From Candidatus Wallbacteria bacterium (GTDB lineage Bacteria > Muiribacteriota > JAQTZZ01): DNA of 64,000 bases. The stretch spans positions 124,001 through 188,000 of the forward strand of contig JAQTZZ010000001.1 in assembly GCA_028687545.1 (NCBI GenBank). Direction: 5' to 3'. Below the pieces are notes generated by a model that did no database searches, was not told the DNA's origin, and saw only the letters and a program-made list of their open reading frames with translations. Both the position numbers and the translations under genes were made by a program. Of this stretch, positions 1,144 through 39,359 are shown piece by piece (within the stretch, counting starts at the first letter, position 1; every line of letters begins with the position of its first letter).

Positions 1144-1244
1144 AAGTTTGTAAGTTGGTAAGTTATTAAGTTTATAAGTTAGGAAGATGTAAATCCCCAA
1201 CTTATAAACTGACAATCTTAAAAACTTATCAACCAATAAGAACT
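1144..1244. repeat. Octamer-periodic inverted repeat element, copy 1
   Basis: The left arm is five tandem units of AAGTTNNT (AAGTTTGT, AAGTTGGT, AAGTTATT, AAGTTTAT, AAGTTAGG). After a short spacer the complementary arm follows in units such as AACTTATA and AACTTATC. The element can fold into a long imperfect hairpin. It lies between the convergent ends of mlaD and the esterase gene. Similar copies lie near 6677, 39426 and 54345. Confidence 0.75.
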
Positions 1245-1264
1245 GAGCTTGATTTTATAGAAGC

Positions 1265-2377
1265 TTAAAACACATCATATTTCATTTTCATCATGGCATC
1301 GATCAGATGATTGCTCCAGTTGTGCCAGCTATGGCCTTCAGGGAAGAATTGTGGAATAAACTTGAAATTGCCTGCTTCCTTGATCAGATTGGAAAGTTCC
1401 CTGGTTTCCCTGAAAATATCCACCCCGTTGATCGAGGTCTCAAATGTCCCGCTCTGCAGGATCAGGCGTTGAAGTGAGCGTCCTTTTTCCGCAAACAGAT
1501 GGAAAAAATAGTCTTTGAGGTGACCCAGCGGAACCGACTGCACGATGGCGTCGAAACTGGAGGAAGACAGGAAGATCTGCAGTACCGCGATGCCGGCCAT
1601 TGCTTCTCCGATCACCAGATTATTCCTGTCTGAGGTGAGCAGGAATTTTTCATGGAGCATAGGCAGGAGTTCCTCGAAGAAAAAAAGCGGGTAGTCAGGA
1701 TTGCAGCTGAATTCATGAGTGTAATCCCTTGATTCGACAAAAAAAGCCAGGCAGGGGTGGAACTTCTTGCGGTGAAAAAGATTGTCCAGCACAGTGACGA
1801 TACTGCCATACTGGAGGTAATTGTGCCCATCCAGGAAAATCAGGTAGTCATAGCGGGTTTCAGGGTTGAAATCATTGGGAAGATAGACGTAGACGGTGGA
1901 GAAATAGCCCAGATGTTTGCTTTTCAGTACGAAATCCAGCAGCTGTCCCCCTGGATTCTCCTGATAATTCAACTCCTCGTTCTCATGATAGTAAGGCATC
2001 TTCAGGAGTGAGTTCTCCCCAAGCTGGCCTCTGGATTTGGTAGGATTCAGCAGATCCAGCGTGTAGTTTCCACCGATGATCATTTTATATTCAACAGCAG
2101 CATCGTGAGGAAGTTCAACCGGGAGGAAAGTGATGTCTGTGGAAGTCATTTTCCGCATCGGGTGTGATCCTGGTTTCCAGTTGTTGATGTCGCCCAGCAG
2201 TTCCACGTTCTCATACCTGTTTCTGGTCAGAAAAATCACCTCATCCCTGAAAATCAGCGGACAGCGCATTGAACTGACTTTCTGCCAGAAAATGTTAACA
2301 AACCGTTCCTTTTCATATCCGCTGAGTTCTTCGATCCTTTTCTGGAAATCAAAAAAGAAGGAATTTATGGGGAGCAT
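1265..2377 (-). CDS. Enterochelin-esterase-like alpha/beta hydrolase, nucleophile apparently lost
   Basis: The protein has an N-terminal early-set/carbohydrate-binding-like domain (about residues 35-125, with LLGDINNWKPG and the DLLNP motif), followed by an esterase-D/Fes-type alpha/beta hydrolase domain (YVYLPNDF, LIFLDGHNY, ending in GHSWHNW, which supplies the catalytic-His motif). In active relatives the nucleophile elbow is G-x-S-x-G; here it reads IGEAMAG, with Ala where Ser is expected. It may therefore be a non-hydrolytic binding protein. It overlaps the upstream alpha/beta hydrolase gene by 13 bases, so the two are co-transcribed. Family assignment is good; substrate unknown. Confidence 0.75.
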   Translation of the reverse strand: MLPINSFFFDFQKRIEELSGYEKERFVNIFWQKVSSMRCPLIFRDEVIFLTRNRYENVELLGDINNWKPGSHPMRKMTSTDITFLPVELPHDAAVEYKMIIGGNYTLDLLNPTKSRGQLGENSLLKMPYYHENEELNYQENPGGQLLDFVLKSKHLGYFSTVYVYLPNDFNPETRYDYLIFLDGHNYLQYGSIVTVLDNLFHRKKFHPCLAFFVESRDYTHEFSCNPDYPLFFFEELLPMLHEKFLLTSDRNNLVIGEAMAGIAVLQIFLSSSSFDAIVQSVPLGHLKDYFFHLFAEKGRSLQRLILQSGTFETSINGVDIFRETRELSNLIKEAGNFKFIPQFFPEGHSWHNWSNHLIDAMMKMKYDVF

Positions 2378-31788: not shown

Positions 31789-32337
31789 ATGAAAGTCTGG
31801 AAATGCAAGTGCGGAGAAATAAATCTCGAACAGGAAAAGAAATGCGGGTTGTGCCGAAAAACGCGCAAAAATGAAGTTGTTGAGGAAATGGATCCTGTTC
31901 AGAAAAAAGACGTATTTCCAGAAAGCCAGTTCCAGAAGAGTAGTATTTTAGAAGAATCGTCAATACCTATTCTTAAAGACAGCTATCTAATACCCAAAAA
32001 GCTGACAATAGACTTTTTCGCTGGAATAATTTCAGTTTTTTTAGCTGGTTTTGTATTTTATTATTTCAGAGATCAATTTAAACATCCGGAAATTTTACAT
32101 ACTTCAATTTTAGTCATTATTGTGTGCCTGTTAGCGTTGTTAAGGGATAATTATATTAAAGGGTTTATAACAGGAATCTTTTTACTTTCGACTGGTTTTT
32201 TAATAATAATCCCTTATTTAGCATATCGTAGATGGGGATCTAGTTCGATCTGGTTTTTGTTAAGTGTGCTGTTGCTGCCATTATTATTTTTTGGGGCATG
32301 CACGATTTCCTTTATTAAAAATCCAGGGGGGTGTTAG
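31789..32337 (+). CDS. Tandem zinc-finger membrane protein, member 1
   Basis: 182 residues. The N-terminal finger is KVWKCKCGEINLEQ, then CGLC: W-x-C-x-C-G-x-x-N and C-x-x-C, a compact four-cysteine zinc finger resembling the RanBP2 type but with C-x-C in the first pair. A charged linker (30-65) leads to three or four membrane segments (about 68-88, 102-114, 118-138, 150-170). The last ends LLFFGACTISF and the protein ends in GGC. First of six tandem paralogues. Promoter not obvious. Confidence 0.75.
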   Translation: MKVWKCKCGEINLEQEKKCGLCRKTRKNEVVEEMDPVQKKDVFPESQFQKSSILEESSIPILKDSYLIPKKLTIDFFAGIISVFLAGFVFYYFRDQFKHPEILHTSILVIIVCLLALLRDNYIKGFITGIFLLSTGFLIIIPYLAYRRWGSSSIWFLLSVLLLPLLFFGACTISFIKNPGGC

Positions 32338-32382
32338 AGTTTTTTCAATGGAAAGAAATTTCGACAAAGAGCAGGTATCTGA

Positions 32383-32859
32383 ATGAAAATGTGGAAATGC
32401 CGCTGCGGCATAGTTTATCAGGAAAAAAGTTCAGTCTGCAGTAAATGCGGGCAGATTCTAGTCGAGCAAAACGATAATGAAACAACATCTGGACAGGTGA
32501 ATTCTCAATCTGAGGATTCGAATTTATTAAGAGTTGATTTTTTCCCACGCAAACCATTAACTATCGAGTATTTCATCGGAATAGCGGCTTTTATTATCGC
32601 TTTGATAGCCGTTGAAATATGGATTAAACAAACACCTGCTGGCTCGATTGTGTTCCGCGATGGGATACTTTGGAAAGGTTTGACAGGCCTATGGATTTTT
32701 GTATGTGTTTTTCGCAAAAGAATTCAGTTTTGGAGAGGCGTGCTTACTGCATTTTTATGGGCAGTACTTTTCGCTTTTCTATTTATGGGAGCATGTACAC
32801 TAGGGATGCTTAATATGATTCAGGACGGGCTTAACAAGGGAATTCCAATCGGATGTTAA
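32383..32859 (+). CDS. Tandem zinc-finger membrane protein, member 2
   Basis: 158 residues: MWKCRCGIVYQEKSSVCSKCG finger, linker, then membrane segments about 65-82, 97-109 and 120-137. The last membrane segment contains LFMGACTLG and the protein ends in IPIGC. PLTIEYFIGIAAF matches LTIDFFAGIISVF of member 1. Paralogue of 31789-32337. Confidence 0.75.
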   Translation: MKMWKCRCGIVYQEKSSVCSKCGQILVEQNDNETTSGQVNSQSEDSNLLRVDFFPRKPLTIEYFIGIAAFIIALIAVEIWIKQTPAGSIVFRDGILWKGLTGLWIFVCVFRKRIQFWRGVLTAFLWAVLFAFLFMGACTLGMLNMIQDGLNKGIPIGC

Positions 32860-32900
32860 TGAGATGTGAAAAACTCAGTATCATCACACATGGTGAAATT

Positions 32901-33377
32901 ATGAAAGTCTGGAAATGCAAGTGTGGGGAAACGAATCCAGAGCAGCTAGGAGTTTGCAGTCAGTGTGGTGGGCAAATCCCTTCAAAACCTAAAACAAAAA
33001 CACTTGTTATTTTAGTTGGAATTTCGATTTTTTTAGCAGCATCTTGTTTATGGTATTATTTCAGAAACCAGTTTGAGTACCCGTTATATGTTCTACTAAT
33101 CATTCTAGTCGTAACCGGTTTGATGCTTGCGATATTGAGAGAAACTGATTTTATTTCAGGAAGGACTCACACTGAAAGCGACAATGAGCAAAGTCCAGAT
33201 TTTTTTTCAAAGCGGCCGGCAACACCTGAACACTATGAATCTTGTAACGAAGCTGATTCTAAAAACATGGGGTGTTTTGCAGTTTTGTTCTATTTTATTT
33301 TTGCATTGATATTTCTGATTTCGCTGCTTTTCGGTGCATTTGCATTGTTTACAGGATCAAGAGCAGGCTGCAATTAA
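32901..33377 (+). CDS. Tandem zinc-finger membrane protein, member 3
   Basis: 158 residues from ATG 32901, chosen because the family finger begins there (KVWKCKCGETNPEQ, CSQCGG); the open frame starts 16 codons earlier and overlaps member 2. Membrane segments at about 34-48, 62-77 and 125-150; the last has LLFGAFALF, with Phe where the others have Cys, and the end is SRAGCN. Confidence 0.7.
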   Translation: MKVWKCKCGETNPEQLGVCSQCGGQIPSKPKTKTLVILVGISIFLAASCLWYYFRNQFEYPLYVLLIILVVTGLMLAILRETDFISGRTHTESDNEQSPDFFSKRPATPEHYESCNEADSKNMGCFAVLFYFIFALIFLISLLFGAFALFTGSRAGCN

Positions 33378-33396
33378 AATATTGGTAGGTATCTGA

Positions 33397-33645
33397 ATGA
33401 AAATCTGGAAATGCAGATGCGGGACGTTGAACGAGGAACTAGTAATATCCTGCCGCAATTGTGGTGAACCCAGGCCAGATGAAATCAATAGTGATGAGAA
33501 AACGGGGCAGGAAGAAGCTGTATCTGGTTCCGAGTCGGCCTCCGGGCTTTTAAAGGGCTGCTTTATTATTGTAAATATTGTGGTGTTAATCATTGTTTTG
33601 CTATACGGCGCGTGCTTTTTCGTTGGACTGGTGAAAGGAAATTGA
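33397..33645 (+). CDS. Tandem zinc-finger membrane protein, member 4 (short)
   Basis: 82 residues: finger IWKCRCGTLNEE ... CRNCG, short charged linker, then one membrane segment ending LLYGACFFVGLVKGN. It has lost the first membrane segments and keeps only the finger plus the terminal GAC segment, which marks those two parts as the core of the family. Confidence 0.7.
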   Translation: MKIWKCRCGTLNEELVISCRNCGEPRPDEINSDEKTGQEEAVSGSESASGLLKGCFIIVNIVVLIIVLLYGACFFVGLVKGN

Positions 33646-33656
33646 AGGGATTGAGA

Positions 33657-34085
33657 ATGAAATCCTGGAAATGCAAATGCGGTATTGTAAATCCAGATTT
33701 TAAGGCAACCTGCAGTAAATGCGGGCAACACAGATCTGAAAATTTTGTTGCAGGTACACTGCCAGGGAATCAGGGAAAAACCAACACTAATAATAAGCAA
33801 AACACGATTGATCAACCTGTTAAAAAAAAATCGAACAAGTATTACTACGGTATGTTGATTACAATTATTACAATCTGGACTTCTTTGCATCCAGGACTGA
33901 TTAATCTGTTTTTAGCCTTAATAATTATACTTGCAATTTTTGCGGATATTAACTAGGATTTTCAATCTGGTTTTAAAACAATTTGGAATTTCTGGTCTTT
34001 GCTTTCTCTAGTAATTTTTGTCTCAGCTATCATAATCCTAAACTGGGATAGACTGGAGGTTTTTTTACTGGGACTGTGGCTTTAG
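33657..34085 (+). pseudogene. Tandem zinc-finger membrane protein, member 5, interrupted by an in-frame TAG
   Basis: The frame opens with SWKCKCGIVNPDFK and CSKCG. It stops at TAG 33954-33956 after 99 residues. Reading on in the same frame gives 42 more hydrophobic codons (DFQSGFKTI ... FLLGLWL) to a second TAG at 34083-34085. This part aligns with member 6 (KDFLCGIYNGF and following membrane segment), so the first TAG cuts a former longer gene. The last GAC segment is missing. Probably decaying; readthrough is possible but unsupported. Confidence 0.65.
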
Positions 34086-34253
34086 TTTGAGGAGCCTATT
34101 TGGCGTTGAAAAATATTTGCTGCATTTTCATTGAAATTACTGTTAGCTTGAATTATGGACTTATGCACTATATGGATTCTTTATGACTCAATATAGATGA
34201 GATGTTAGCGATTTTATGAACACATAGGTTTTCTTGAAAAAAAAGGATTGTAA

Positions 34254-34736
34254 ATGAAAATCTGGAAATGCAAATGCGGGGAAGTGAACGAAGAGCAGGT
34301 TGATTTCTGCCTCAAGTGCGGACATTTAAGAACCGATGAAATAATTGTGGAAAAATTGCCGGAATCTCAGGAAGACAAAATTCCTGATCAATTATCAATT
34401 CCAGAGAAAACTAATATTATTTTCAAATATTTTGAAATTCCCAAACCTGTTACATTTGCATTTCTGGCCGGTGTGGCAGCATTTTATCTATCTTTGTATG
34501 TGTTTTACAAGATGTTTTCGCTATTTACACCCAAGACAAGCTTAACCCCATGGGCTGTCGTTCTGACCGAACTACTTTGTCTGGAAGCTTTAATGTTTGC
34601 ATTTCGCAAAAAAAAGGATTTTTTGTGCGGTATTTATAATGGATTTAGGTTATCTATTTTACTGATTTTCCTCTTGTTACTACTGTTGTTTGGATCGTGT
34701 ACTTATGTTTTTTTAAATTACGGCTGCAGTGGTTGA
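34254..34736 (+). CDS. Tandem zinc-finger membrane protein, member 6
   Basis: 160 residues: IWKCKCGEVNEEQVDFCLKCG, linker with EKLPESQEDK similar to the linker in member 1, membrane segments about 62-82, 101-113 and 126-150. The last segment carries LLFGSCTYV and the protein ends YGCSG. It sits 23 bases before the Tes-like operon. Confidence 0.75.
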   Translation: MKIWKCKCGEVNEEQVDFCLKCGHLRTDEIIVEKLPESQEDKIPDQLSIPEKTNIIFKYFEIPKPVTFAFLAGVAAFYLSLYVFYKMFSLFTPKTSLTPWAVVLTELLCLEALMFAFRKKKDFLCGIYNGFRLSILLIFLLLLLLFGSCTYVFLNYGCSG

Positions 34737-34759: not shown

Positions 34760-36142
34760 ATGGACTTGATGCAAAATAATTTATCTGACACAGCGTCAAT
34801 CTGCCCGGAATGCAGAAAGCTAATTCCCGCTGCTTATGTTGAAAGAGCCGGAGCGGTTTATCTGGATAAAACCTGCCCTGAGCACGGGGAATTCCACAGC
34901 CTTGTCGAAGAAGATGCACGTTTTTTTCATCGCAGAGCTGAATTTGACAAGCCTGCCACTGAATCGATCAAGCAGACTGTTAAAACTAAAGGCTGTCCTC
35001 ATGACTGCGGTCTTTGCGATCAGCATGATCAGCATACCTGCATTGCTGTGCTGGAAATAACCGGGGAGTGCGATTTGTCCTGTCCGGTTTGCTATGCGCA
35101 ACCTCTCACAGGCGGATTCATGGCCTTGGAAACTGTCGGGAAAATACTGGATTTTTACCAGCACTGCGAGTCAGGGAATGCGGAGATCCTGCAGCTCAGC
35201 GGAGGAGAGCCTACGCTTCATCCGCAACTGCTCAAAATCATCGAAACTGCGATTGATAAGAAAATAAAGTATGTGATGCTGAATACAAATGGCTATAACC
35301 TGGCTCACAATAAAGAATTGGTTAAAAGCCTGGCCGGAATCGGCTCAGGCTTCGAGATTTATCTGCAGTTTGACGGGCTGCAGCCTGGCTCAATGCAGAC
35401 ACTCAGAGGAATTGATCAGCTTTCCTGGAAAATCAGAGCCTTAGACAACATTCTGGAATCCGGGATTCCTGTGACTCTGGTTACTACTGTTGCCAATGGA
35501 ATCAATGACGATCAGCTTGGCGAAATCTTGAATTACGGCATTTCCAGGCCAGGCATCAGAGGCATCAATTTCCAGGCTGCAGCAGCTTTCAGTCCAAGCT
35601 CTCCAGTCAACGCGGAACAATGCATCACAATCAGCGGCCTGGCTGCCAGGCTTGAAAAACAGACTTCCGGACTCATCAAAATCAATGACCTGGTTCCCCT
35701 GCCCTGCAATGTGCATAACCATGGCCTGACTTTCATGGTGCGGAATGAGAGGGGGTTCCAGCCCATTACCCGCCAGGTGGATCTCAAGCCTCACCTGGAC
35801 CTGATCGAAAATTCCTTTTATCATGACGCTACAGGGATTATGAAAAAAATGGAATCAGGGTTGTGTGGAAATTCAACTGTCTGCAAGTGCATGAGTTTTC
35901 TGACTGATTTCAGCACCATGCTGCCTGAACTTTTCAAAAGCGGCACGCTCGAACAAAAGCGGAATTTCATCAACCACAATCTATTCAGAATCAGCCTGAG
36001 CAGATTCAATGACCTGCATTCATTTGCCCTGGACGCAGTAGCCAAGGAATGTGTGCATATTTTTACGCCTGATCTGCTGAGGATTCCTTTTTCAGTCTAC
36101 AACCTGTTCCATCGCGGAGGAAAAAAAGCACATGCCGAATAA
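34760..36142 (+). CDS. Tes-like radical SAM enzyme (tetraether-lipid-synthase family)
   Basis: 460 residues. The radical SAM motif ECDLSCPVCYA (C-x3-C-x2-C) binds the core [4Fe-4S]. Two extra cysteine regions precede it: ICPECRKLIPA with TCPEHGEF, and GCPHDCGLCDQHDQHTC. This layout is that of the Tes/MJ0619 family, whose archaeal member joins two lipid tails by C-C bond formation. QLSGGEPTLHP is the SAM-binding GGE motif. It leads a run of five overlapping genes that includes membrane enzymes. In a bacterium the substrate would be a bacterial lipid, which is inference. Bacterial homologues are known but mostly uncharacterised. Confidence 0.82.
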   Translation: MDLMQNNLSDTASICPECRKLIPAAYVERAGAVYLDKTCPEHGEFHSLVEEDARFFHRRAEFDKPATESIKQTVKTKGCPHDCGLCDQHDQHTCIAVLEITGECDLSCPVCYAQPLTGGFMALETVGKILDFYQHCESGNAEILQLSGGEPTLHPQLLKIIETAIDKKIKYVMLNTNGYNLAHNKELVKSLAGIGSGFEIYLQFDGLQPGSMQTLRGIDQLSWKIRALDNILESGIPVTLVTTVANGINDDQLGEILNYGISRPGIRGINFQAAAAFSPSSPVNAEQCITISGLAARLEKQTSGLIKINDLVPLPCNVHNHGLTFMVRNERGFQPITRQVDLKPHLDLIENSFYHDATGIMKKMESGLCGNSTVCKCMSFLTDFSTMLPELFKSGTLEQKRNFINHNLFRISLSRFNDLHSFALDAVAKECVHIFTPDLLRIPFSVYNLFHRGGKKAHAE

Positions 36143-36797
36143 TCCCGCAGTTATGCTCCTGTTACTCAAAGAGCGATTCCTGACCGGTGACATTTACGTA
36201 AAAATTGATATCATTGCTGCCTTGATTGTCGTGATCTGCGCCTGGCTGATCATTGTCTCAGTTTTCATGAATTTCATGGATGCCCAGAAAGCTGATAAAG
36301 TACGCCATGAAAAGAAACACCTGGTAGCAACTGCCAGCATGAGCCTGTTTTATCTGTTTTATTATCTGCTGCTCCGCTTCCAGATCGGCGGTTTCCGGAT
36401 CGCGGACCCGATGCTCCGCCTGACTCTCATCTTCATTGGCCTGACTGTTCTGATCACAGGCACTGCTGTTAATCTTCTGGGAAGATTGTCTCTGGGTCAT
36501 AACTGGGGGGATCAGATCAGGATTTATCACGGCCATCAGCTGGTCAATCGCGGAGTTTACAGGCTGGTCAGGCATCCGCTGTATGCTTCGCTGATCTGGA
36601 TTTTTTACGCGGGCTGCCTGATTTATCCGAATTACGCGGGTTTCCTTGCCAATACTGCCGTATTTCTGCCCATGATGTTTTACAGGGCCAGGCAGGAAGA
36701 AGAGATCCTGATCCGGGAATTTCCAGAATATATAAATTATCAAAAGGAGGTCGGCATGTTCATGCCCATTTTCAGGAGGCGCAATGACGGAAAATAA
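36132..36797 (+). CDS. Isoprenylcysteine carboxyl methyltransferase-like membrane protein
   Basis: 221 residues with about five membrane segments. The C-terminal half has the ICMT/PEMT fold motif: GVYRLVRHPLYAS and RARQEEEILIREFPEY followed by a P-containing tail. Related enzymes use SAM to methylate lipids or prenylated substrates at the membrane. It overlaps the Tes-like gene by 11 bases, so both are coupled. The real methyl acceptor is unknown. Confidence 0.8.
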   Translation: MPNNPAVMLLLLKERFLTGDIYVKIDIIAALIVVICAWLIIVSVFMNFMDAQKADKVRHEKKHLVATASMSLFYLFYYLLLRFQIGGFRIADPMLRLTLIFIGLTVLITGTAVNLLGRLSLGHNWGDQIRIYHGHQLVNRGVYRLVRHPLYASLIWIFYAGCLIYPNYAGFLANTAVFLPMMFYRARQEEEILIREFPEYINYQKEVGMFMPIFRRRNDGK

Positions 36798-37221
36798 AGT
36801 GATGGTTTCAAGGGGAGGGTTCCTTTTCTGCAGATGGACTGTGGCAGTAATACTCTGGTGCGCGTTTTTTCTGCGGAGCAGGGAACTGGTGATTTTGTCC
36901 TGCGCGATTCTTGCTCTGTCAGCACTGCTCAAGATCAGGAAAGCTCCTCTGGTCTGGATTTACACGATGACACTGGGAAAATTGTTCCAGTCTTCTTTGG
37001 AAGAGCTGGACGAATCCGCAATGCGTTTCGCGCATTCCTTCGGCACAGTGCTGCATCTGATCGCGATTTCATTGCTCTATCTGCCAAACCCCAGGGCCGG
37101 CTGGCTGCTGGTGCTGATCCTATGCTTCGGTAAAACCGCAGGAGCCATGGGATTCTGCACAGCCCTGAAGATTTACGGCTGCCTGAAGAGCGGCGGCTGC
37201 TGCAGATTTACCGGCAAATGA
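36784..37221 (+). CDS. DUF4395-like membrane protein
   Basis: 145 residues with four likely membrane segments and a C-terminal cysteine cluster (MGFCTALKIYGCLKSGGCC). The GFC-x-x-x-K-I-Y-G-C pattern resembles DUF4395 proteins. Overlaps the ICMT-like gene (14 bases) and the Lgt-like gene (4 bases). Function unknown; the cysteines may bind metal or form disulfides. Confidence 0.6.
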   Translation: MTENKVMVSRGGFLFCRWTVAVILWCAFFLRSRELVILSCAILALSALLKIRKAPLVWIYTMTLGKLFQSSLEELDESAMRFAHSFGTVLHLIAISLLYLPNPRAGWLLVLILCFGKTAGAMGFCTALKIYGCLKSGGCCRFTGK

Positions 37222-37997
37222 ATACAGTCCAGTGCTGCCCTCAGAACTGGGGAGTTCTGCCTGTACTTTTCCATTTCGGGAATGTTTTGATCAGCAGTTA
37301 TTTCGTGTTTATCGGCCTGGGCCTCATGGCTGCACTTGCTTCATATTACCTGGAATTCCGGCGGGAACCTCAACGCAATGCCCAACTCTTGCCGCTGGTG
37401 TTTTTCGCTTTTGCGGGTGGTGTAATAGGTGCCAAGCTTCCTATGTGGATCATTAATTTTAAAGCGATCATAGCCGGTGGTTTTGCGCCTGAGCTGATTT
37501 TTCCCGGTAAAACCATAGTCGGAGGCCTGATCGGCGGCACGATCGCAGTCAGGATCGCTAAAAGGCAAATGGGTATCAAAACCAGGATGGGAAATTCCAT
37601 TGCTCCTGCGATCGCGATTGGACTGGCTGTTGCCAGGATCGGCTGCTTCCTGCAGGGCTGTTGCTTCGGAAGACCGACACTTCTTCCCTGGGGCGTGAAT
37701 TTCGGCGATGGAATCATGCGACATCCGACTCAGCTTTATGAGTCGCTTTTCATGTTCGTTCTGTTCTTTTTGCTGATCCGTAAAAGCAGGAACAATCCTG
37801 CCCCAGGTGAACTCTTCGACTTTCTGATGGCCATGTATTTCGGTTTCAGGTTTTTCGAGGAATTTTTGCGTGCGAGCGATATCGTCTTTATAGGACTGAC
37901 AGGATATCAGCTTGTTTCCCTGCCGCTCGCGAGCTGGTTCGGTTTAAGGCTGAACAGCAGCTTGATATTCCGGAAAGGCAAGGAAGAAAGTCCATGA
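37218..37997 (+). CDS. Lgt-like prolipoprotein diacylglyceryl transferase family protein
   Basis: 259 residues with seven or so membrane segments. The ARIGCFLQGCCFGRPT stretch carries the Arg of the Lgt signature G-R-x-G-N-F-x-N-G in divergent form, and RHPTQLYE is the conserved HPxQLYE of Lgt. Canonical Lgt transfers diacylglyceryl from phosphatidylglycerol to lipobox cysteine. The altered signature and operon with Tes-like and ICMT-like genes suggest a specialised paralogue working on another acceptor. It overlaps neighbours by 4 bases at both ends. Confidence 0.78.
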   Translation: MNTVQCCPQNWGVLPVLFHFGNVLISSYFVFIGLGLMAALASYYLEFRREPQRNAQLLPLVFFAFAGGVIGAKLPMWIINFKAIIAGGFAPELIFPGKTIVGGLIGGTIAVRIAKRQMGIKTRMGNSIAPAIAIGLAVARIGCFLQGCCFGRPTLLPWGVNFGDGIMRHPTQLYESLFMFVLFFLLIRKSRNNPAPGELFDFLMAMYFGFRFFEEFLRASDIVFIGLTGYQLVSLPLASWFGLRLNSSLIFRKGKEESP

Positions 37998-38854
37998 AAA
38001 TATCGATAAAAAGGATAATCCGCTCTATAGTCGAAATCATAGTTGTCACCTACCTGATCAGCGCTTGTTTTCTGTATTTTTTCCAGGACAAGCTCCTTTT
38101 TCTGACCACCAGGGAAATGTACAGCACCACTCCTGCAATCCACGGCATTGAGTACAAAGACGTTTATTTCAAGACAAAGGACGGGCTGAAGCTGCACGGC
38201 TGGTTCATCACCGGAAAATCAGAAAATCCGTATCTTCTTTTCTGCCACGGCAATGCGGAAAATGTCTCAGGACTGCTGGAATCAGCCCTGCAGTTTTACC
38301 AGCTCGGCTTGAATGTGCTTTTCTTTGATTATCGCTGCTACGGCAAAAGTGAAGGAAAGACAATCTCCGAAACAGGCACTTACCTGGATGCTGAGGCTGC
38401 CTGGGATTTCATGGTGAATGAATTGAAAATCCCGTCTGATAAGATCATCATTTTCGGCAGGTCGCTAGGTGGAGCAGTAGCGACAAAACTGGCAAGTGAG
38501 CGGACCTGCGAAGCCCTGATCGTGGAATCAGGATTTTATTCGGCAACTGAGCGGGCAGCTGAACTCTATAAATGGTATCCGATAAAATGGATGATCAGGA
38601 ATCCTTACGAGTCAGGCAAGAATCTCCGCAGCATCAAATGTCCGGTCTTAATCATCCACAGCCCAGATGATGAGATCATCCCCTTCCATCACGGCCAGGA
38701 ATTGTTCGCTGCAGCTAATGAACCGAAGAGATTTCTGACCCTTAAAGGGGACCATAATAACGGATACTGGATTTATCAGGAGATTTACCTGGCAGGGATA
38801 AAGCAGTTTTTAGTGGAATTTAATTTGATGAATTTCAGAGCAGCGGGCCGCTGA
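37994..38854 (+). CDS. Membrane-anchored alpha/beta hydrolase (ABHD13/YqiK-like)
   Basis: 286 residues: N-terminal membrane anchor (about 12-30), then an alpha/beta hydrolase domain with CHGNAENVSG, DYRCYGKSEG, nucleophile elbow GRSLGGAVA, acid HSPDDEIIP, and His in GDHNNGY. It is the last gene of the Tes-like run (4-base overlap). Likely acts on an ester or lipid at the membrane; substrate unknown. Confidence 0.78.
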   Translation: MKISIKRIIRSIVEIIVVTYLISACFLYFFQDKLLFLTTREMYSTTPAIHGIEYKDVYFKTKDGLKLHGWFITGKSENPYLLFCHGNAENVSGLLESALQFYQLGLNVLFFDYRCYGKSEGKTISETGTYLDAEAAWDFMVNELKIPSDKIIIFGRSLGGAVATKLASERTCEALIVESGFYSATERAAELYKWYPIKWMIRNPYESGKNLRSIKCPVLIIHSPDDEIIPFHHGQELFAAANEPKRFLTLKGDHNNGYWIYQEIYLAGIKQFLVEFNLMNFRAAGR

Positions 38855-39359
38855 TTACGAGCAGCAGGATGCCTGAGAGGAAGAGGAGAAGGGCGTAGCG
38901 GAAGAAGCGGAATTTCTTGTGTGCGATGCAGGCATTGGCGTAAACTCCGATCAGAATGTCCCTGTCCAGGGGAGACAAAGCCTCTGATCCGTAATATTTC
39001 TTCACAATAGCTTGCTCGAAAGAGGCGAATTCAGGGAAAGAGGCGATTTCAGAGAAAAGGAACAGGTTGCGCTCCCTGCTGTCTGTGCCTGGCGCACTTT
39101 TCAGGCTGGGCGGATTGTTGATCACAGGAAAGAATGACCAGAAAGACAGGACCAGGGCCAGCACAATCAGGCAGTAGCCTGTGGAAAACAGAAGCTGCGG
39201 CCAGGTTGTGAATCCCAGTTTCTGATAGATCAGGAGCACGATCGCGCCGGCTGAAGCCGCCACTGCCGAATTCTTGGCTTCAGCGTATTTCACCATATCC
39301 TGGAGATTCAGGAAAATCCTGAAAATCGTCTCGCGTAGAGGTGCGTCAGGGCAATTCAT
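38835..39359 (-). CDS. Pycsar-effector/DUF5706-like membrane protein
   Basis: 174 residues. LNLQDMVKYAEAKNSAVAASAG at the N-terminal side resembles the Y-A-D-x-K-A-x-x-L motif of DUF5706/Pycsar-effector and related 2-3TM proteins. Three membrane segments at about 33-47, 53-76 and 150-173, with the AHKKFRFFRYALLLFL region before the last. Such proteins are membrane effectors of nucleotide-signal defence systems. No cyclase is adjacent, so a defence role is only a possibility. Convergent with the hydrolase gene (20-base overlap). Confidence 0.5.
   Translation of the reverse strand: MNCPDAPLRETIFRIFLNLQDMVKYAEAKNSAVAASAGAIVLLIYQKLGFTTWPQLLFSTGYCLIVLALVLSFWSFFPVINNPPSLKSAPGTDSRERNLFLFSEIASFPEFASFEQAIVKKYYGSEALSPLDRDILIGVYANACIAHKKFRFFRYALLLFLSGILLLVISGPLL

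What the first reader, a model, noticed from the sequence alone, without database searches (positions are those of the whole stretch)
34760..38854. Tes-like radical SAM enzyme coupled to ICMT-like, DUF4395, Lgt-like and hydrolase genes: possible membrane-lipid modification pathway
Five genes overlap by 4-14 bases. The leader has the exact cysteine layout of the tetraether-lipid-synthase family, which joins lipid tails. The others are membrane enzymes of lipid-methylation (ICMT/PEMT), diacylglyceryl-transfer (Lgt, divergent ARIGCFLQGCCFGRPT signature) and ester-hydrolysis types. Together they look like a route that makes, methylates and attaches an unusual lipid or a membrane-spanning lipid in a bacterium.
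Basis: partly seen in the sequence, partly recalled or inferred. Interest (0 to 1): 0.88.

Follow-up and report, generated by a model that had tools for sequence, protein, structure and literature searches.

The report
Radical-SAM/Lgt-like system with cysteine-tailed membrane proteins
The five genes are one version of a widespread, apparently undescribed bacterial gene set that pairs a radical enzyme and a lipoprotein-type enzyme with tiny membrane proteins carrying one conserved cysteine, and so may be a new way for bacteria to modify, probably lipidate, membrane proteins.

Summary
The five overlapping genes are real, but they are not the natural unit. The radical SAM protein has the Tes (tetraether synthase) fold and the exact N-terminal and central Cys motifs. 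It lacks most of Tes's C-terminal cysteines, misses the Tes and TrsS cut-offs, and forms its own clade. Across Bacteroidota, Pseudomonadota, Planctomycetota, Chloroflexota, Bacillota and Armatimonadota that clade sits beside a second Lgt paralog (66 of 80 loci; 41 of 48 in an independent set). This paralog keeps the phospholipid-pocket residues but never has the essential His103. 72 of 75 directly downstream copies have the cysteine (41% of background ORFs do). In 247 Bacteroidia genomes their profile's top six hits all lie next to the pair. In the window they are a tandem zinc-ribbon array just upstream. ICMT-like and DUF4395 genes are an add-on shared by four genomes; the hydrolase occurs only here. 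Best reading: the Lgt-like enzyme lipidates that cysteine with help from the radical SAM enzyme. Membrane-spanning lipid synthesis is not supported. Function is inferred.

The parts
31789..32337 (+). Zinc-ribbon + C-terminal TM-Cys protein (tail LLPLLFFGAC-TISFIKNPGGC), putative substrate
   Evidence: ORF; tail signature; array alignment
32383..32859 (+). Zinc-ribbon + C-terminal TM-Cys protein (tail AFLFMGAC-TLGM...), putative substrate
32901..33377 (+). Zinc-ribbon paralog; TM tail has LLFGAF (Cys replaced by Phe), ends AGCN
   Evidence: family of paralogs confirmed
33397..33645 (+). Zinc-ribbon + C-terminal TM-Cys protein (82 aa; tail VLLYGAC-FFVGLVKGN), putative substrate
33657..33956 (+). 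Zinc-ribbon paralog without the TM-Cys tail, probably truncated
34254..34736 (+). Zinc-ribbon + C-terminal TM-Cys protein (tail LLLLLLFGSC-TYVFLNYGCSG), 23 bp upstream of the radical SAM gene, putative substrate
34760..36142 (+). Tes-like radical SAM enzyme, own clade (not Tes, not TrsS); Tes C-terminal cluster cysteines mostly lost, Cys-rich insert C369/C374/C376 present
36132..36797 (+). ICMT/PEMT-family membrane methyltransferase (closest solved structure Ma-ICMT 4a2n, E 1.9e-16)
   Evidence: same position in L031, L033, L144
36784..37221 (+). DUF4395 membrane protein with conserved GFC...C...CC at the C-terminus
   Evidence: predicted helical membrane protein without a PDB match
37218..37997 (+). 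Lgt-like protein, second Lgt paralog; R143/E202/Y235/R239 equivalents kept, catalytic His103 position is Val
37994..38854 (+). Membrane-anchored alpha/beta hydrolase; overlaps LGT gene by 4 bp but not found beside the pair in the other three four-gene loci

Best explanation
The locus is one version of a three-part bacterial membrane-protein modification system. (a) The substrates are small membrane proteins in which a positively charged cytoplasmic flank is followed by a transmembrane helix and a conserved Cys at its outer end (consensus [LI]-[LI]-G-[FL]-[GS]-x-C), usually 4-11 residues from the C-terminus. In the window they are the zinc-ribbon proteins at 31789-34736. (b) The Lgt-like enzyme binds a phosphatidylglycerol-type donor, like Lgt, and transfers its glyceryl-lipid part to that Cys, with no catalytic His of its own. 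(c) The Tes-like radical SAM enzyme does a radical step on the lipid donor, or on the tail, that makes this transfer possible or finishes it. In the window and three other genomes an ICMT-like methyltransferase and a DUF4395 protein add a further step. Shown by sequence: the three parts, their linkage, the conserved Cys and its geometry, and the lost or kept catalytic residues. Inferred: that the Cys is the acceptor, that the group is a glycerolipid, and every reaction order.
For: LGT-like gene next to the radical SAM gene on the same strand in 66 of 80 loci and in 41 of 48 independent ones; the label clusters on the tree (0 of 500 shuffles as low). It is a second copy beside a higher-scoring Lgt in 12 of 13 genomes and in the host. 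Small TM-Cys ORFs: strict motif 54/696 near against 3/5929 far (Fisher 5e-50); tail signature in the independent set 27/373 near against 11/5587 background (8e-25); rare beside related radical SAM genes without LGT (3 of 57 against 24 of 48 loci). With no Cys required, 72 of 75 immediately downstream ORFs have it, against 49 of 119 background ORFs (1.6e-16); median distance from the radical SAM stop is -1 bp. In 247 Bacteroidia genomes the top six profile hits are all adjacent to the radical SAM gene. N-side net charge +2.1, positive in 86 of 105; median tail 8 residues, so the Cys lies on the outer side, where Lgt works. All 53 linked LGTs keep Arg143, Glu202, Tyr235 and Arg239 equivalents. 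The four-gene variant (window, L031, L033, L032 with L144) always has a small [FLV]G[AST]C protein, overlapping the LGT gene by 8 bp in L144.
Against: No biochemistry. His103, without which E. coli Lgt is inactive (PMC4728403), is aliphatic or Thr in all 53 copies, so thiol activation would have to differ. The motif is not a classical lipobox. About a third of the clade's loci show no tail protein by my criteria, partly from contig ends or strict filters. One window paralog has Phe in place of the Cys and one lacks the tail. What the radical SAM enzyme does is not determined by any result here.
Confidence: 0.45

Rival explanations
1. RiPP-like maturation: the radical SAM enzyme modifies the small TM proteins directly (for example C-methylation or a thioether at the Gly/Cys motif), and the Lgt-like protein is a membrane scaffold or presents the tail.
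For: Small ORFs are translationally coupled to the radical SAM gene (median -1 bp); tandem variable paralogs with a constant motif resemble precursor-peptide families; loss of His103 weakens transferase activity of the Lgt-like protein.
Against: The enzyme has the full-length lipid-synthase (GDGT-MAS) fold, not a SPASM peptide maturase (Pfam, fold); phospholipid-pocket residues of the Lgt-like protein are invariant; the Cys is predicted outside while a radical SAM enzyme works in the cytoplasm.
Confidence: 0.25
2. One reading: the radical SAM enzyme joins lipid tails, and ICMT-like, Lgt-like and hydrolase proteins methylate, attach and trim a membrane-spanning lipid.
For: Closest solved structure is GDGT-MAS (E 1e-112 by profile, TM-score 0.82); bacterial Tes homologs have been proposed for brGDGT synthesis (PMC8941075).
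Against: Tes cut-off not met (275 against 450 bits); own clade; Tes cysteines C455 and C470 and M439 and Y459 missing; ICMT, DUF4395 and hydrolase are not conserved parts.
Confidence: 0.08
3. The TM-Cys proteins and partners form a membrane redox or metal-handling complex, and the single TM Cys is a ligand rather than a modification site.
For: Zinc-ribbon domains in several TM-Cys proteins; Cys-rich DUF4395; Fe-S rich radical SAM enzyme.
Against: Most small proteins have only one conserved Cys and no zinc ribbon; a radical SAM/Lgt pair has no obvious redox role.
Confidence: 0.12
4. CaaX-like finishing in the window clade: after lipidation the short tail after the Cys is cut off and the ICMT-like enzyme methylates the new C-terminal carboxyl group, like prenylcysteine processing in eukaryotes. 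It extends the best explanation and would not replace it.
For: ICMT-like gene sits in all four loci of the clade, each with a TM-[FLV]G[AST]C protein; closest structure is Ma-ICMT; window has an extra hydrolase.
Against: No conserved protease in the four loci; the hydrolase is only in the window; the ICMT family also holds S- and phospholipid methyltransferases.
Confidence: 0.1

Closest known systems
Tetraether lipid synthase Tes / GDGT-MAS (MJ0619, PDB 7TOL/7TOM, NF045702)
   Same: Full-length fold, rubredoxin-like site, N-terminal cluster and radical SAM CX3CX2C motif
   Different: C-terminal cluster cysteines and M439/Y459 mostly lost, below family cut-off, separate bacterial clade tied to an Lgt-like gene
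Radical SAM (seleno)protein TrsS (NF045646)
   Same: Best-scoring NCBIfam model (312 bits), same superfamily
   Different: Cut-off 490 not met; TrsS members (550-703 bits) form another clade without Lgt neighbours
Prolipoprotein diacylglyceryl transferase Lgt (PDB 5AZB/5AZC)
   Same: Same fold family; Arg143, Glu202, Tyr235 and Arg239 equivalents invariant
   Different: Catalytic His103 never present (V/M/L/I/T in 53 of 53), extra copy beside the housekeeping Lgt, tied to the radical SAM gene
Bacterial lipoprotein lipobox
   Same: Positive flank, hydrophobic helix, small residues before the Cys, Gly/Ser/Ala after it, Cys on the outer side
   Different: Usually at the C-terminus with a 4-11 residue tail; motif G-[FL]-[GS]-x-C, not L-[AS]-[GA]-C
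NCBIfam NF058595 'lipo-invert putative C-terminal anchoring domain'
   Same: The name suggests a related idea
   Different: No match over cut-off in the host or in 27 genomes including system-bearing ones, and no tail protein scored against it beyond noise
Isoprenylcysteine carboxyl methyltransferase ICMT (Ma-ICMT 4A2N)
   Same: Family match, RHPLYxS and EE motifs
   Different: Below the NCBIfam equivalog cut-off (75 against 160 bits); substrate unknown

Membership tests
Tes tetraether lipid synthase | Score over NCBIfam NF045702 cut-off (450 bits) | tested here: not met
   275 bits
Tes tetraether lipid synthase | Rubredoxin CX2CX20CX2H, N-cluster CX3CX2C, radical SAM CX3CX2C | tested here: met
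   C15/C18/C39/H42, C79/C83/C86, C104/C108/C111
Tes tetraether lipid synthase | C-terminal auxiliary cluster region (C455, C456, C470, M439) and conserved Y459 | tested here: not met
   Only C456 kept; E, S, S and I at C455, C470, M439 and Y459. Which Cys are ligands is inferred from the alignment and the paper's text
Tes tetraether lipid synthase | Forms C-C bonds between lipid tails | not testable with these tools
   needs in vitro or in vivo lipid analysis
TrsS | Score over NF045646 cut-off (490 bits) and clade membership | tested here: not met
   312 bits; rows scoring as TrsS lie in another clade
Lgt | Pfam LGT over cut-off | tested here: met
   129 against 24.9 bits
Lgt | TIGR00544 lgt equivalog cut-off (118.9 bits) | tested here: not met
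   69.8 bits
Lgt | Catalytic His103 (HGGL motif) | tested here: not met
   Val101 in the window; aliphatic or Thr in 53 of 53 linked copies. Caveat: the host's housekeeping Lgt has Tyr here
Lgt | Phosphatidylglycerol-pocket residues R143, E202, Y235, R239 | tested here: met
   R140, E175, Y207, R211; invariant in 53 of 53
ICMT / PEMT methyltransferases | Pfam ICMT cut-off | tested here: met
   44.6 against 24 bits
Protein-S-isoprenylcysteine O-methyltransferase equivalog | NF040696 cut-off (160 bits) | tested here: not met
   74.7 bits
SPASM-type RiPP maturases | SPASM auxiliary domain | tested here: not met
   no SPASM match at E <= 1
NCBIfam lipo-invert tail (NF058595) | Score over cut-off (37 bits) | tested here: not met
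   0 over cut-off in the host and in 27 genomes
Bacterial membrane-spanning lipid synthase MSS | Sequence family membership | not tested
   no MSS sequence at hand; recalled from the literature only

The most novel reading that the evidence does not exclude
A widespread bacterial system that lipidates a cysteine at the outer end of a (mostly C-terminal) transmembrane helix, using an Lgt homolog without the catalytic His together with a Tes-fold radical SAM enzyme that makes or finishes an unusual lipid or thioether: a second lipoprotein-making route, with CaaX-like carboxyl methylation in the window's clade.
Probability: 0.35. Interest if true: 0.93.

Novelty: categorically new. Interest (0 to 1): 0.8.

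Why it matters
If the reading holds, bacteria of at least six phyla own a second, C-terminal type of protein lipidation (or another radical-based tail modification), with dozens of unannotated small proteins as substrates. It would also give a function to bacterial Tes homologs of this clade, which have been put forward as candidates for brGDGT synthesis and so matter for tracing lipid biomarkers. The hosts include culturable relatives (Aquimarina, Mucilaginibacter, Chitinophaga, Hymenobacter, Methylococcus, Massilia, Brevibacillus), so it can be tested directly.

Tried and rejected
Reading the five genes as the unit: rejected, because only L031, L033 and L032 with L144 share ICMT and DUF4395, and none has the hydrolase beside the pair. 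The RIGCFLxGCCxG motif as special: rejected, the housekeeping Lgt has it. Tes or TrsS membership: cut-offs and tree fail. NF058595 lipo-invert tail as the name of the small proteins: no matches over cut-off; its best hit, about 8 kb from the Ktedonosporobacter pair, lies in unrelated genes. Pfam and NCBIfam names for the small proteins: none. Fold of DUF4395: low-similarity PDB matches only, best E 0.3. Literature on an Lgt/radical SAM pair: none found in open-access PMC; subscription papers and preprints not searched. The host phylum was not identified.
Full report
What was checked. The genome has 71 radical SAM matches, three of them in the wider Tes-like group, but this protein is the only one of its own clade. 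In 40 genomes of the host phylum all other Tes-like proteins are at most about 36% identical and those placed on the tree fall in a different clade, so this locus looks acquired by transfer. The region is also AT-rich (32-34 kb at 37% GC against about 48%).

The radical SAM enzyme. Its best NCBIfam models are TrsS (312 bits, cut-off 490) and Tes (275 bits, cut-off 450), neither met. The only close solved structure is GDGT-MAS/Tes (phmmer 2.6e-56; family profile 1e-112; predicted model against 7TOM TM-score 0.82, all others about 0.4 or lower). The rubredoxin-like, N-terminal cluster and radical SAM motifs match Tes exactly. The C-terminal region does not: Tes C438, M439, C455, Y459 and C470 are L, S, E, I and S here, and only C456 (=C431) stays. 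In 75 members of the wider bacterial set, C316 and C431 are invariant, at least two more Cys lie in the linker, and the Tes pair C455/C470 is either both present (10) or both absent (65). The window's clade carries a Cys-rich insert instead (C369, C374, C376). So the Tes-type radical-holding cluster is rebuilt or gone; which one cannot be told from sequence. The tree puts the window with L031, L032 and L033 (support 100), apart from Tes and from TrsS.

The Lgt-like partner. Of 80 loci from named genomes, 66 have an LGT homolog within 5 kb on the same strand, usually within 400 bp. Several of the 14 exceptions are contig ends or belong to a related clade without LGT. In an independent draw of whole genomes 41 of 48 loci have it. 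The family is patchy: 12 of 247 Bacteroidia genomes, 11 of 369 gammaproteobacterial genomes, about 30 of 246 genomes of the phylum of L041 (Planctomycetota) and 2 of 300 genomes of the phylum of L035 at the high-scoring level, with a clear gap to other Tes-like proteins. It is an extra copy: 12 of 13 genomes, and the host, have a separate higher-scoring Lgt. Aligned to E. coli Lgt, residues that bind the phospholipid (R143, E202, Y235, R239) are invariant in 53 of 53, while the essential His103 (H103A/N/Q/R/Y inactive, PMC4728403; proposed base, PMC8689077) is V, M, L, I or T. Caution: the host's housekeeping Lgt has Tyr at that place and Cys at the N146 place, so only the aliphatic residue at 103 sets the paralogs apart.

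The third part. Scanning around the pairs showed small hydrophobic ORFs with a Cys in a constant setting. Aligned on the Cys, 105 of them give: positive flank (net +2.1 on the N side, positive in 86), about 15 hydrophobic residues, [LI][LI]G[FL][GS]x, Cys, Gly/Ser/Ala, and a tail of median 8 residues. By the positive-inside rule the Cys is at the outer end of the helix, as in a lipobox. Tests: strict motif 54/696 near against 3/5929 elsewhere; a motif-free 'tail' signature, applied to loci not used to define it, 27/373 against 11/5587; loci of related radical SAM genes without LGT 3 of 57 against 24 of 48. With no Cys required, 75 small TM ORFs start at the radical SAM stop (median -1 bp) and 72 carry the Cys, against 49 of 119 background ORFs; two of the three exceptions have a Cys-bearing paralog next door. 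A profile of one Bacteroidota group, run on 247 genomes, has as its six best hits exactly six system genomes, each hit close beside the radical SAM gene; the first hit elsewhere is at E 4e-4. The small proteins fall into many sequence groups, and none has a Pfam or NCBIfam name. These counts treat loci as independent, which related genomes are not; the independent set and the many phyla reduce but do not remove that concern.

The window's own version. Six zinc-ribbon proteins stand in a row at 31789-34736; four end in TM-[FMY]G[AS]C, one has Phe for Cys and one lacks the tail. The last ends 23 bp before the radical SAM gene. In the whole genome relatives occur almost only here; one on another contig has another C-terminus. 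Zinc ribbon plus TM-Cys tail recurs beside the pair in loci of the L041 (Planctomycetota) phylum search (L176, L178, L179, L183, L184, also L160, L161) and in L188. The four-gene order radical SAM-ICMT-DUF4395-LGT is shared with L031, L033 and with L032, whose missing half is on contig L144, where a 97-aa protein ending LALGAC-AAAVAASGFG overlaps the LGT gene by 8 bp.

How it probably works. Shown: three linked parts, one conserved Cys with lipobox-like geometry, a kept phospholipid pocket, a lost Lgt base, and a lipid-enzyme fold in the radical SAM protein. Inferred: the Lgt-like enzyme puts a glycerolipid on the Cys, and the radical SAM enzyme prepares the donor or finishes the product. Why both are needed is open; loss of His103 fits a changed chemistry. 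The ICMT-like enzyme in the window's clade could methylate a freed C-terminal carboxyl group, as in CaaX processing, but no conserved protease is present.

Verdict. Observation partly confirmed; lipid idea kept in altered form; membrane-spanning lipid not supported. The linkage of the three parts is strong (I put it near 0.9); lipidation of the Cys is a hypothesis (0.45). I found no description of such a system in the libraries or open-access papers searched, which is not proof that none exists.

Noticed in passing
window 38835-39359 (-): 174-aa membrane protein with a PycTM (Pycsar effector) domain, E 2.5e-7, convergent to the operon; no cyclase gene sought or seen beside it.
   Followed up: no
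L018 and L002 (own genome contig C9 106-111 kb; G029 C360): Tandem pairs of other Tes-like radical SAM proteins, found in about 17 of 40 genomes of the phylum, beside short-chain dehydrogenase, acyltransferase-like or cysteine desulfurase genes; a separate clade (23 rows) with Tes-type C-terminal Cys. These may be better candidates for lipid-tail chemistry than the gene in the finding.
   Followed up: partly
L034 9541-10461 and L035 10124-11005: Both loci have a similar permease (motif TPFCxCT) directly behind the pair; family not tested.
   Followed up: no
L031: The contig is labelled Paceibacterota (1.1 Mb MAG, a single LGT hit which is the linked paralog); the label may be a binning error or a transfer.
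   Followed up: no
L127 (own genome C50), 1150-1602 (-): 150-aa zinc-ribbon relative of the window array without the TM-Cys tail, away from any pair.
   Followed up: partly
window 33957-34253: Gap in the zinc-ribbon array that looks like decayed remains of the preceding paralog's C-terminal half.
   Followed up: no
NCBIfam NF058595: A model named 'lipo-invert putative C-terminal anchoring domain' exists but I could find no paper on it; it may mark a related idea by its curators.
   Followed up: partly
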